Positions 26,442 through 34,519 of a stretch of DNA of 50,417 nt are shown here, in pieces. The first letter of the stretch is position 1, and each line of letters opens with the position of its first letter. The notes beneath the pieces were generated by a model. It was not told where the DNA came from and searched no databases. It saw nothing but the letters and a program-made list of their open reading frames with translations. The position numbers were made by a program, and so were the translations under genes. Origin of the DNA: Bacilli bacterium. Lineage in GTDB: Bacteria > Bacillota_I > Bacilli_A > RFN20 > CAG-826. The stretch lies in assembly GCA_017447725.1 (NCBI GenBank), contig JAFSMX010000007.1, positions 1-50,417 of the forward strand, written 5' to 3'.

Positions 26442-27698
26442 CTATTTTTCCTTTTTCGAAGTACCTCGTTTTTTATCGATTTTTTTCTTTAAATCTTTGT
26501 CGACAATCTTAGATCCAACCTGGATAATATTGGCGTTTTCTGGTTCATAAGAATTGAGTTTTTCGAGGTTTGCATTAACTCGATTTTGCTTTCTTTCTTC
26601 TTCGGTTGCATTATCAAAATAGACCGAAGTTTTTTCATCAATCGCAAGTGTCATGGCGGCAAAGTCATGAGGTGAACGACGCTCTTTATTTGTCAGCATT
26701 ACAATCAAGATAATAACTGCTCCGATACCAAGAGTAGCGATAGAAGTTAATCCAAATCCAACAATGAATAAGGAGAATGAAATTTCTACTAAGAAGATTA
26801 ACTGACGGAACAAGATTTGTCGCTTCTTGGCTCGGTAACCAAGTTTAGAAATAACGGCAATACCAAGTGTCTTCTTACCAAGTGTCGCTCCATCTTTAAA
26901 TAACATAGGAATTAAGATATATAATCCACCAACGACGAATAAGTACGTTGGAATGTAGCACCAAAGTTGAATTGCTCGAACATTTCCTTGTAAGGATTGC
27001 ATATAGTCGGTGTAATAGAATTCTTTTGTCGCATCATAAAGGCGTTTATTAATATCGTTAATAGCCTCATCTTTGTTTGCGCCTTCCTTTAAAACTGGTA
27101 ACCCTTCATAGTCAACATGATCATCAACGACTGGATAAGAATAATAAGGAGATTGATTTTCTTCTCCTTCAGGGGCTAATCCCATGATTTTGGTGTTGAA
27201 ATACACTTTAGTGTATATCTCGCTTGGAAGCTTTCCATCAATCTTATCTAAATAGTGTGGCGAAACGAAATGATCCTTCACCGCATCATAAGTTTTTGAT
27301 TCAGTATTATTTGGAAGTTCAACACGAGTTAAGTCACCAGTTAAATAAACAGTATAGTAATACTGAAGATGGGCAATTCTTTGATCGAGAGTAAAATCTC
27401 CAACATTTCTCGTTTCATTTACTCTTTGGAGATATTGGTTATTGATTTTTTCACTGAAGTCTTTGACTTCGATTGGTTGATATTTTCCAGTGTCATCTTG
27501 TTGCATCCACATGTATAAGTGCGAAGAGATTTCGTACTGATAAATATCACTAACATCGGCATCATATGTTGTTGCTTTTCGAGCAATTGGGGTCGCGACA
27601 TAAGTCACTAAAATAAAATATAAGAAGAAAGCAAAAATAGCATCCATGAAGGCGGCAACAATTCGTCTAAAAAGTGGGGCTATTTCAATTTTTTTCAT
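26442..27698 (-). CDS. RDD-family membrane protein (second of pair)
   Basis: 418 residues. RDD domain pieces are the N-terminal RRIVAAFMDAIFAF (Arg and first Asp) and the later SPHDFAAMTLAID. About four or five membrane segments frame a large extracytoplasmic region (residues 40-225) rich in Tyr, Asp and Lys; the cytoplasmic C-terminus is long and basic (KKKIDKKRGTSKK). RDD proteins are poorly defined; some act as Na+/H+ antiporters or scaffolds. It overlaps the upstream paralogue by four bases, so the two are likely partners. Confidence 0.85.
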   Translation of the reverse strand: MKKIEIAPLFRRIVAAFMDAIFAFFLYFILVTYVATPIARKATTYDADVSDIYQYEISSHLYMWMQQDDTGKYQPIEVKDFSEKINNQYLQRVNETRNVGDFTLDQRIAHLQYYYTVYLTGDLTRVELPNNTESKTYDAVKDHFVSPHYLDKIDGKLPSEIYTKVYFNTKIMGLAPEGEENQSPYYSYPVVDDHVDYEGLPVLKEGANKDEAINDINKRLYDATKEFYYTDYMQSLQGNVRAIQLWCYIPTYLFVVGGLYILIPMLFKDGATLGKKTLGIAVISKLGYRAKKRQILFRQLIFLVEISFSLFIVGFGLTSIATLGIGAVIILIVMLTNKERRSPHDFAAMTLAIDEKTSVYFDNATEEERKQNRVNANLEKLNSYEPENANIIQVGSKIVDKDLKKKIDKKRGTSKKEK

Positions 27699-28813
27699 TG
27701 TAAATCTTCTGCTTCGATAAACTCTTCTTCATCGATTTCCGAATCAAAAATGATTGAACTTTCAGCATCAATTACAAGGGTTCTGCCGGTATAATCGTGT
27801 AAAGCGCAGTGTTTTGGAGAGGCAGCAGTTAGACCACCACTGACCATGAAAATTACCGCAGCAATGGAGAATGCAATGTAGTAACTTGGAAGTGGAAGTA
27901 AGAAGATCAAAGCTAACGTTAAAATTAACGGAGTTACTCTTAAGAGTAGTTGATATTTCTGCATCTTATATCCATCAATCGCACACAAGCCAAGTTTCAT
28001 AATCTTCTTACCAATTGAAGCGTTATTTTTCATAAACATTGGAATGATTACGTAACTAATTAAAGAGGCCAAAACTGCCGGAATTAACCAGGAAACTGCG
28101 GTTAAAAATGTAATTTTGTCATAATACGGACGATAAAAATTTTGGTTCATTAAACTACCAAAATAAGCTTGTTTATATTTCTCGTATAAAACAGCGGCGG
28201 TTTCGCCTTCGGTGACTTCCACCACTTTGCCTTGTTTTGTGGAGTAGTGTTCAGTGCGACGAACACCGATTTTTGTTTTGTCAATAACGTCACCAGTTTT
28301 GTCGTACATAAAATAAGCTGTTGATGTTTCGGATGGTTCATCTTCCTTAATTTCTAAAATATTCTCGTTAAACCATGCCACTGTGTAATAGTTAACTGGA
28401 AGAGTTTCTGTTCCACTAACGTATTCTTTATAGTTTGGAGCTTTATAAGCATCTTGATCACCAGTGTAACCTTCTGGAATCTCTACTCCTTCACCAGTTA
28501 AATAATGTAAATAATAATAAGAAAGAATATCCAAATAGAGTTGGTAGTTTCCTTCTTGCTTGTATTGCTTTCGAGTTTTGCTTTCTTCGTCATAATAGAA
28601 AAGATGTGAATTAAAATCACATGGATAAAGCTTCTCATAACACGCATCAATCGATGGGTTAAAAGCAAACTTCACCGCTCCAAAAGCAAGGACGATAGTA
28701 AAGAGTAAGGTCAAGGCAGCATCAACTAAAAAGGCGGTAATTCTTTTACCAATTGGGGCCATTAAAGTATGACGCGGAAGACTCTGTCCTTTTTTCTCTT
28801 TAAACTGACTCAT
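27695..28813 (-). CDS. RDD-family membrane protein (first of pair)
   Basis: 372 residues, paralogous to the following gene with the same layout. It has RITAFLVDAALTLLF near residue 25, an external domain to about residue 240, then membrane helices and LHDYTGRTLVID near the end. The large external domain is unlike simple RDD transporters of about 150 residues. The gene has a promoter ending seven bases before the ATG and no ribosome site, so a leaderless mRNA is predicted. It lies between the tuf terminator and the ABC operon promoter as a two-gene unit. Confidence 0.85.
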   Translation of the reverse strand: MSQFKEKKGQSLPRHTLMAPIGKRITAFLVDAALTLLFTIVLAFGAVKFAFNPSIDACYEKLYPCDFNSHLFYYDEESKTRKQYKQEGNYQLYLDILSYYYLHYLTGEGVEIPEGYTGDQDAYKAPNYKEYVSGTETLPVNYYTVAWFNENILEIKEDEPSETSTAYFMYDKTGDVIDKTKIGVRRTEHYSTKQGKVVEVTEGETAAVLYEKYKQAYFGSLMNQNFYRPYYDKITFLTAVSWLIPAVLASLISYVIIPMFMKNNASIGKKIMKLGLCAIDGYKMQKYQLLLRVTPLILTLALIFLLPLPSYYIAFSIAAVIFMVSGGLTAASPKHCALHDYTGRTLVIDAESSIIFDSEIDEEEFIEAEDLQ

Positions 28814-33775: not shown

Positions 33776-34231
33776 TTATTTATTTTCTTCGGATGAATTT
33801 GGTTCATCCTTTTCTTTTACAGCGGTATCAAGTGATTTTCCAAAGACAAAGTATCTTTGATATAAGAACTCTGTAACAAAGTTAATCGCCATATTTATGC
33901 CTGTGGCCACATAAGGCGATCCAGGGAATGTCCATTTATTTGTTAACACCCATTCAAGTTGTAATGAAAGAGGTGTAAATACAATGTAATAGGCCACCAC
34001 TTTTAACATCGCGATTGGAACATTACTCGCGCTTTTAAATGTATACTTACGATTAAACGTGAAGTTCCAGATGACTGAAAGAACTAGCGCAATTCCATAA
34101 CTAATCCAATGATCAAGATGCGCAACTTCTTCAAGAAGAGTAAAGGAGATGATTTGAACAACTCCGGCCGAGATAGAGAAGAGGGTAAACTTCGCCGCTC
34201 TAAATACTTCTTTACGGTCGACTTTTTTCAT
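33776..34231 (-). CDS. GtrA-family membrane protein
   Basis: 151 residues with four membrane helices and short basic ends. Recognisable features are KFTLFSISAGVVQIISFTLL at the start, NFTFNRKYTFKS in the middle and FVTEFLYQRYFVF near the end, typical of the GtrA/DPMS family that moves lipid-linked sugars or takes part in wall-polymer and glycosylation pathways. It stands alone between the unknown structured RNA and the peptide locus. No ribosome site is seen; a TAAAAT box lies eight bases before the ATG. Confidence 0.88.
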   Translation of the reverse strand: MKKVDRKEVFRAAKFTLFSISAGVVQIISFTLLEEVAHLDHWISYGIALVLSVIWNFTFNRKYTFKSASNVPIAMLKVVAYYIVFTPLSLQLEWVLTNKWTFPGSPYVATGINMAINFVTEFLYQRYFVFGKSLDTAVKEKDEPNSSEENK

Positions 34232-34273: not shown

Positions 34274-34290
34274 ACACCCATAAAGGATGT
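34274..34290 (-). terminator. Terminator of the unknown structured RNA
   Basis: ACATCC-TTTAT-GGGTGT on the minus strand (one G-U pair) followed by TTTTATTTATTTTTATT. Confidence 0.75.
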
Positions 34291-34390
34291 GATTATTGCC
34301 AACCAGGATAGCCGTCCCTGGATCGCTTTGATATACCCATCTCCGGGGAGATGCGCCGTGGTCGCGTGCTAATTTTCCACCTTTGGCAAT
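34274..34390 (-). ncRNA. Compact structured RNA of unknown class (small RNA or riboswitch)
   Basis: On the minus strand the core 34390-34295 (96 bases) is closed by ATTGCCAA/TTGGCAAT. Inside are GTGG/CCAC (34377-34380 with 34358-34361), a 6-bp hairpin CATCTC/GAGATG (34338-34353), and CCAGG/CCTGG (34303-34321) stacked next to the closing helix, a multi-branch layout. It is followed by an intrinsic terminator. A promoter places transcription start at the first base or two of the closing helix, as for stand-alone RNAs. GC content is well above the surrounding spacer. It lacks the SRP RNA GGUCNGGAAGGAAGCAGC-like apex and the motifs of riboswitch classes I know. A riboswitch controlling the following GtrA-family gene is the alternative. 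Confidence 0.7.
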
Positions 34391-34394
34391 TTTT

Positions 34395-34422
34395 ATTATA
34401 AAAAAATAATTAAATTTTACAA
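34395..34422 (-). promoter_or_regulatory. Promoter of the unknown structured RNA
   Basis: TTGTAA (34417-34422), 16 bases, TATAAT (34395-34400). The start falls at about 34388, inside the closing helix of the RNA. Confidence 0.7.
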
Positions 34423-34495: not shown

Positions 34496-34519
34496 AACCG
34501 CCATTTTGCAATGACGGTT
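34496..34519 (-). terminator. rpoBC terminator
   Basis: AACCGTCATT-GCAA-AATGGCGGTT on the minus strand (10-bp stem, one G-U pair) followed by TTTTG, 21 bases after the rpoC stop. Confidence 0.88.

What the first reader, a model, noticed from the sequence alone, without database searches (positions are those of the whole stretch)
34274..34422. Unassigned structured RNA between rpoC and a GtrA-family gene
A 96-base GC-rich RNA core is closed by ATTGCCAA/TTGGCAAT with three internal stems. It has its own promoter starting at the first base pair of the closing helix and its own terminator. It does not match SRP RNA, 6S RNA, tmRNA or riboswitch consensus sequences that I know. It may be a stand-alone regulatory RNA or an aptamer controlling the GtrA-family membrane protein.
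Basis: partly seen in the sequence, partly recalled or inferred. Interest (0 to 1): 0.82.

Follow-up and report, generated by a model that had tools for sequence, protein, structure and literature searches.

The report
Orphan RNA of a toxin-antitoxin-like pair

Summary
The element is real, but it lies on the minus strand: -10 box at 34400-34395, RNA core 34391-34294, terminator 34290-34274. Fifty-two related copies in gut/rumen Bacilli show a -10 box (42) and a terminator (47) on that strand, against 0 and 2 on the other. The fold is a closing helix P1 around hairpins P2, P3 and P4, with the loops of P2 and P4 kissing. Strong compensatory changes support it, including in the kissing helix, which the model did not use. 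No Rfam family reaches its cut-off, but a covariance model built only from these RNAs finds true skipping-rope RNAs (RF02924) in register (E down to 6e-6), so this is a divergent branch of that class, for which I found no known function. About half of the copies lie just downstream of a ~125-aa gene with a predicted BECR-RNase fold. Every clear copy of that gene has an adjacent RNA, whereas RNAs without the gene are common. Classical skipping-rope RNAs are likewise often next to solo PBECR3 nuclease genes, in chromosomes and phages. Best explanation: an RNA antitoxin of a type III-like system. The window copy is an orphan, since neither gene family was found in its genome. Neutralisation is inferred, not shown.

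The parts
34294..34391 (-). RNA core (98 nt, minus strand), orphan member of a new branch of skipping-rope-type RNAs
   Evidence: R1 match 78.2 bits, E 8.4e-18 (the sequence is in the seed of 8), plus more than 40 homologues outside the seed
34383..34390 (-). P1 5' arm (ATTGCCAA), pairs with 34302-34295; probable transcription start within or next to it
   Evidence: all 8 pairs of P1 show changes on both sides across copies
34295..34302 (-). P1 3' arm (TTGGCAAT)
34358..34380 (-). P2 hairpin GUGG (34380-34377) / CCAC (34361-34358); 5' arm and loop carry the conserved GGAAA motif
   Evidence: 97.1% of cells paired, almost invariant, so little covariation
34338..34353 (-). P3 hairpin CAUCUC/GAGAUG
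   Evidence: 5 of 5 modelled pairs with double changes, 96.3% paired
34303..34321 (-). P4 hairpin CCAGG/CCUGG
   Evidence: 5 of 5 pairs with double changes, 98.4% paired
34368..34371 (-). kissing strand in P2 loop (UAGC), pairs with 34312-34309
   Evidence: not part of model R1, so not biased by it; UAGC/GCUA here against CAGC/GCUG, GAGC/GCUC, CAGU/ACUG, CGCUG/CAGCG, CGGUG/CACCG elsewhere
34309..34312 (-). kissing strand in P4 loop (GCUA)
34395..34422 (-). promoter TTGTAA - 16 nt - TATAAT
   Evidence: -10 box at this place in 42 of 52 copies, 0 of 52 on the other strand
34274..34290 (-). intrinsic terminator hairpin (T run continues to about 34266)
   Evidence: fold z -3.34; present in 47 of 52 copies, 2 of 52 on the other strand
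34496..34519 (-). terminator-like hairpin after rpoC, separating the RNA from rpoC
33776..34231 (-). GtrA-family gene downstream (Pfam PF04138, 8.9e-14); bystander
   Evidence: other copies of the RNA have other neighbours

Best explanation
The element is a minus-strand gene for a ~125-nt small RNA (core 98 nt plus terminator) that belongs to a divergent, family-restricted branch of the skipping-rope RNA class. The RNA folds into a compact particle: helix P1 encloses hairpins P2, P3 and P4, and the P2 and P4 loops kiss. Such RNAs are the RNA half of a two-gene module whose other half is a small protein with a predicted BECR-type RNase fold (the new 'C0' family in this clade, PBECR3 in other Bacilli and phages). 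Most likely the RNA binds the nuclease and keeps it inactive, i.e. a type III-like toxin-antitoxin pair, probably used by phages/mobile elements or against them. In the window's genome the nuclease gene is absent and two orphan RNAs remain. Shown here: strand, promoter and terminator signals, fold, homology to RF02924, gene linkage, and the one-sided dependence (nuclease gene hardly ever without RNA, RNA often without it). Inferred: RNase activity, toxicity, direct binding, neutralisation, and that the orphan still acts (for example as protection against incoming modules).
For: Covariation including a kissing helix not used in the model. Signals on one strand only. R1, built from 8 of these RNAs, when run on 69 kb of RF02924 loci gave 7 hits, all exactly on RF02924 RNAs (E 5.9e-6, 2.1e-5, 7.3e-5, 4.7e-4, 4.9e-4, 0.02, 0.11), and gave hits only in gut/rumen Bacilli contigs among 582 kb from many phyla. 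C0 gene directly upstream, same strand, usually 11-34 nt away. 24 of 25 genomes with a C0 match are convincing (G061 is a weak partial match inside a 589-aa frame); 23 have an R1 RNA and the 24th (G103) has an RNA of this shape by eye on the opposite strand; 10 genomes have RNA without C0. C0 frames with stops keep the RNA (G025, G027). 10 of 16 solo PBECR3 genes lie by an RF02924 RNA and 5 more by a look-alike RNA; none of 3 giant polyvalent PBECR3 proteins has an RF02924 RNA. 15 of 35 chromosomal and 5 of 11 viral skipping-rope RNAs have PBECR3 within about 170 nt (one at 541), always same strand. C0 model (pLDDT 85.7) matches phage MuF-C/nuclease models (prob 0.97-1.00) and BrnT (0.84); PBECR3 model matches BrnT (0.96) and HigB toxins; C0 and PBECR3 profiles align, E 1.4e-4. 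Orphan RNAs keep their pairs as well as linked ones (97.9% against 97.1%).
Against: No experiment: no transcript, no toxicity, no binding. C0 has no Pfam match above cut-off (best MuF_C 0.0017-0.0019), Foldseek E-values are weak and TM-scores modest, and the C0-PBECR3 profile match covers only the C-terminal sheet (probability 53%). Known type III loci have RNA first, tandem repeats and a ToxN-like toxin (PMC5086642); here the RNA is usually a single unit, often after the gene. More than half of skipping-rope RNAs have no recognised nuclease nearby. One solo PBECR3 (G302) has no RNA seen. The look-alike RNAs upstream of 5 PBECR3 genes and the G103 RNA were matched by eye; neither RF02924 nor R1 detects them.
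Confidence: 0.7

Rival explanations
1. The RNA is a guide, scaffold or sensor that the nuclease needs to act (for example an anti-phage effector switched by the RNA), rather than an inhibitor.
For: Tight linkage with a nuclease-fold protein in both gene orders and in prophages, in two loci beside a repressor-like gene and in one of these an integrase-like gene; variable P2 and P4 insertions could carry specificity.
Against: RNAs are often kept without the protein while the protein is hardly ever kept without the RNA, the pattern expected for an antidote; the kissing loop changes freely as long as it pairs, so it is structural rather than a target-reading sequence.
Confidence: 0.1
2. The linkage is by co-mobility only: the RNA is an independent phage or mobile-element sRNA (for example host takeover or DNA packaging) that travels beside nuclease genes.
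For: More than half of skipping-rope RNAs have no nuclease neighbour; phage copies exist.
Against: Always same strand and nearly always within about 170 nt where linked to PBECR3, two barely similar nuclease families with two RNA branches, and no nuclease gene of the C0 clade without an RNA.
Confidence: 0.15
3. Cis-regulatory leader or aptamer for the GtrA gene.
For: On the minus strand the RNA and terminator precede gtrA, whose start is about 43 nt beyond the terminator hairpin.
Against: Other copies are next to unrelated genes, 12 of 46 with the next gene on the opposite strand; terminator stem and P1 do not overlap, so no switch is visible.
Confidence: 0.02
4. Decayed relic without function at this locus.
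For: No C0 or PBECR3 gene found in the genome and no remnant in the window; no other genome searched has a copy at the matching place as far as the neighbours of the fetched copies show.
Against: All 24 scored pairs are intact and the kissing pair carries a double compensatory change not seen in the other copies (UA, 1 of 30 cells); promoter and terminator are intact.
Confidence: 0.2

Closest known systems
skipping-rope RNA (Rfam RF02924)
   Same: P1 enclosing P2, P3 and P4 hairpins, GGAAA motif at the P2 5' arm and loop, CGCA before P3, GAU(G/C)CAGG into P4, pseudoknot (one is reported for RF02924 in PMC7779021), terminator; in-register matches with R1
   Different: No tested member of the window's branch reached the RF02924 cut-off (best 18.7 bits against 36.7); longer P2 loop, different P2 (GUGG/CCAC), optional inserts in P2 and P4; partner gene is C0 rather than PBECR3
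Type III toxin-antitoxin systems (ToxIN, CptIN, TenpIN; PMC5086642)
   Same: RNA with pseudoknot-type fold next to a gene for a small RNase-like protein, intrinsic terminator, some loci with RNA-terminator-gene order
   Different: Single unit, not a tandem repeat array; in this clade the gene comes first and the RNA has its own promoter; BECR-type fold, not ToxN fold
AbiF with its abiF-motif RNA RF03085 (PMC12373285)
   Same: An Rfam motif of unclear role found beside an RNase gene and then shown to neutralise it by direct binding, in cis and in trans
   Different: HEPN RNase; two motif copies per RNA; different RNA fold
PBECR / MuF-C nucleases of phages (PMC5512222)
   Same: Predicted metal-independent RNase fold; solo copies in phages; C0 model matches MuF-C models
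   Different: C0 is below every Pfam cut-off; no RNA partner is mentioned in the passages of that paper that I read

Membership tests
skipping-rope RNA RF02924 | covariance model score at or above the gathering score | tested here: not met
   window: no match at gathering nor among E <= 10; best family member 18.7 bits against 36.7; 0 of 59 relatives over cut-off
skipping-rope RNA RF02924 | homology / same architecture (P1, P2, P3, P4) | tested here: met
   R1 finds 7 RF02924 RNAs among 23 loci, in register, and nothing else; consensus comparison
skipping-rope RNA RF02924 | pseudoknot with covariation | tested here: met
   kissing P2 x P4 with changes on both sides in all 6 pairs; that RF02924's own pseudoknot is the same pair was judged by eye only
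Type III toxin-antitoxin | RNA gene adjacent to a gene for an endoribonuclease-like protein | tested here: met
   in relatives. At the window itself: not met (orphan)
[quoted passage not shown]
   C0 clade: gene first, RNA after with own promoter. RNA-first order occurs in some PBECR3 loci
Type III toxin-antitoxin | tandem repeats of the RNA unit | tested here: not met
   mostly single units; a few loci with two or three copies (L049, L059, L063, L073, L077)
Type III toxin-antitoxin | ToxN (MazF-like) toxin fold | tested here: not met
   models match BrnT / HigB / MuF-C, i.e. BECR-type
Type III toxin-antitoxin | RNA neutralises toxin by direct binding | not testable with these tools
   needs experiment
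PBECR / BECR nuclease (for C0) | Pfam match above cut-off | tested here: not met
   MuF_C 0.0019 and 0.0045, DUF4258 0.013, PBECR3 0.22, all below cut-off
PBECR / BECR nuclease (for C0) | fold and conserved polar residues | tested here: inconclusive
   Foldseek prob 0.97-1.00 to phage MuF-C/nuclease models but E >= 0.002; invariant H49, H55, D61, R91
riboswitch / cis leader of gtrA | conserved position upstream of the same gene | tested here: not met

The most novel reading that the evidence does not exclude
The whole skipping-rope RNA class, with this new branch and a third, unlisted variant, is a superfamily of single-unit kissing-loop RNA antitoxins for BECR-fold nucleases of phages and gut bacteria, found in both gene orders; freestanding copies such as the one in this window are retained as trans-acting immunity against incoming nuclease modules.
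Probability: 0.5. Interest if true: 0.9.

Novelty: new variant of a known kind. Interest (0 to 1): 0.78.

Why it matters
I found no stated function for skipping-rope RNA in the open papers searched, and PBECR proteins were known only as predicted RNases (PMC5512222). Tying the two together gives both a testable function and would extend RNA antitoxins to a new toxin fold, a new RNA fold and a reversed gene order. The orphan copies give a natural test of whether lone antidote RNAs protect cells.

Tried and rejected
(1) Plus-strand RNA: no upstream promoter, no terminator, fold no better than chance. (2) Known Rfam class at threshold: none. (3) RF02924 hits in relatives of the clade (L012, L013, L017): checked three by eye; they are weak, do not show the architecture, and appear to lie in coding DNA. 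(4) A 208-aa protein beside two skipping-rope RNAs, first thought to be a ToxN-like toxin: homologues in 77 of 116 genomes, mostly without a skipping-rope hit, so dropped. (5) Viral copies of this branch: one pattern hit, not matched by R1. (6) PBECR3 relatives in annotated phage records by tblastn with one chromosomal protein: none, although phage contigs carry others. (7) Direct profile match C0 against 5 PBECR3 neighbours: weak; better with 11. (8) Relatives in solved structures by sequence: none credible. (9) A phylum-wide RF02924 search only repeated the class genomes.

Full report
Observation. The core at 34295-34390 with the ATTGCCAA/TTGGCAAT closing helix is present. On the plus strand it folds no better than shuffled sequence, has no promoter before it and no terminator after it. 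On the minus strand it is preceded by TTGTAA-16-TATAAT and followed by an intrinsic terminator (terminator fold z -3.34). A DNA search of related genomes found homologues, and a covariance model R1 from eight hand-trimmed copies found 54 copies in 33 of 144 related genomes, all in the same taxonomic family, up to five per genome. A scan of GTDB species genomes with a loose pattern, filtered with R1, gave 48 hits, all in contigs titled as gut or rumen Bacilli/Bacillales/Erysipelotrichaceae.

Strand and structure. In 52 aligned copies a -10 box is in place in 42 and a terminator in 47; on the opposite strand the same tests succeed in 0 and 2. G-U cells outnumber A-C cells 47 to 18. With 28 pairs in five helices, 91.4% of cells are paired and 25 pairs show changes on both sides; no shuffle of 500 comes near and sliding the partners destroys the signal. 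The kissing helix between the P2 and P4 loops was not in the model that made the alignment, so its covariation is free of that bias: CAGC/GCUG, GAGC/GCUC, CAGU/ACUG, CGCUG/CAGCG, CGGUG/CACCG and, in the window alone, UAGC/GCUA. Where long inserts occur in P2 or P4, the aligned kissing columns are partly gapped and those cells were set aside.

Relation to known RNAs. No Rfam family reaches its cut-off. One member gave a weak RF02924 skipping-rope match (18.7 bits against a cut-off of 36.7). True skipping-rope RNAs were then collected from 395 genomes of the same class. They share the order P1, P2 with a GGAAA motif, P3, GAUGCAGG, P4, P1. R1 run over those loci returned seven hits at E <= 10, every one on an RF02924 RNA and in register. 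I conclude homology, but the window's branch fails RF02924 by score, so it is a sister branch rather than a member.

The partner gene. Clustering of the genes around the copies showed one family, C0, in 23 loci, directly upstream on the same strand, usually 11-34 nt from the RNA. C0 proteins have about 125 residues with invariant H49, H55, D61 and R91, and only sub-threshold Pfam matches to MuF_C, DUF4258 and PBECR3. The AlphaFold2 model (pLDDT 85.7, pTM 0.79) matches phage MuF-C and nuclease models at probability 0.97-1.00, though with E-values no better than 0.002, and the BrnT RNase toxin at 0.84. C0 was found in 25 of 144 genomes; one (G061) is a weak match inside a 589-residue frame, 23 carry an R1 RNA, and in G103 an RNA of this shape lies on the opposite strand just after the gene (by eye). 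Ten genomes, including the window's own, have the RNA without C0. Two C0 frames are broken by stops while the RNA persists (G025, G027).

The same link in classical skipping-rope RNAs. Neighbours of several RF02924 RNAs are PBECR3 proteins (Pfam E 3e-22 to 2e-9). Searching PBECR3 itself in the genomes of the same class gave 16 solo genes above cut-off: ten lie beside an RF02924 RNA, five have directly upstream an RNA of a third sequence type with the same outline and some covarying pairs in P1 and the hairpins, one has none seen; three giant polyvalent proteins with the domain have no RF02924 RNA. With a PBECR3 profile, 15 of 35 chromosomal and 5 of 11 viral skipping-rope RNAs have such a frame nearby, all on the same strand, on either side. 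Two viral loci show the order helix-turn-helix-like gene, PBECR3, RNA, one of them followed by an integrase-like gene (Pfam on the nucleases; the repressor and integrase names are by eye). The PBECR3 model (pLDDT 88.7) matches BrnT (0.96) and, more weakly, HigB toxins, and the C0 and PBECR3 profiles align over the C-terminal sheet with E 1.4e-4.

Mechanism. The simplest account is a type III-like pair: an RNase kept in check by a structured RNA. It explains the linkage, the loss of the protein but not of the RNA, broken genes beside intact RNAs, and phage carriage. It resembles AbiF, whose partner RNA carries an Rfam motif and was shown to neutralise the toxin by binding (PMC12373285). It is not a textbook type III locus: these have RNA first, tandem repeats and a ToxN-like toxin (PMC5086642). 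RNase activity, toxicity and binding remain untested.

The window copy. Neither C0 nor PBECR3 is found in this genome (about 94% complete) or as a remnant in the window; a second orphan copy lies on contig C4. Orphan copies keep their pairs as well as linked ones (97.9% and 97.1%), and the window's own kissing pair has a double change seen in no other copy, which suggests continued selection, though it could predate loss of the partner. The GtrA gene (PF04138) is a bystander: other copies have other neighbours, and the next gene is on the opposite strand in 12 of 46.

Limits. Most genomes are metagenome-assembled, so absence of a gene may be a gap. Several architecture calls (the third RNA type, G103) are by eye and not detected by either covariance model. 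The original description of skipping-rope RNA was not in the library, so any neighbour noted there is unknown to me; 'no known function' means none found in open papers.

Noticed in passing
L261, L266, L273, L274, L279 (directly upstream of the PBECR3 gene on the gene's strand): A third RNA type (AGGGUGUAAAU..UUCUUCUUGCAC .. ACUGGGAGA) with P1, hairpins and a terminator precedes five solo PBECR3 genes; detected neither by RF02924 nor by R1.
   Followed up: partly
L230, downstream of the C0 homologue, opposite strand: A C0 homologue in G103 has an RNA-like element tail to tail with it (P1 TGTGATAA/TTATCACA, possible CCGG/CCGG kissing, terminator).
   Followed up: partly
L047 and L050: An orphan RNA of the long type lies next to the same gene family (cluster C11) in two genomes (G000 and G001), suggesting vertical retention without the nuclease.
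   Followed up: partly
L059, L049, L063, L073, L077: Two or three RNA copies, some of different subtypes, sit in a row, as if the RNAs accumulate or are swapped; in L063 RNAs lie on both sides of a broken C0 frame.
   Followed up: no
L284:4539-5216: In one phage contig a NYN-domain protein (Pfam 3e-10), another predicted RNase type, is directly upstream of a skipping-rope RNA.
   Followed up: no
L080 and L082, just after the RNA: Terminators appear interrupted by sequence that may be the end of an insertion element near contig ends.
   Followed up: no
window 26442-28813: Two adjacent, similar-looking membrane-protein ORFs (418 and 372 aa) follow the EF-Tu gene on the minus strand; family not checked.
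   Followed up: no
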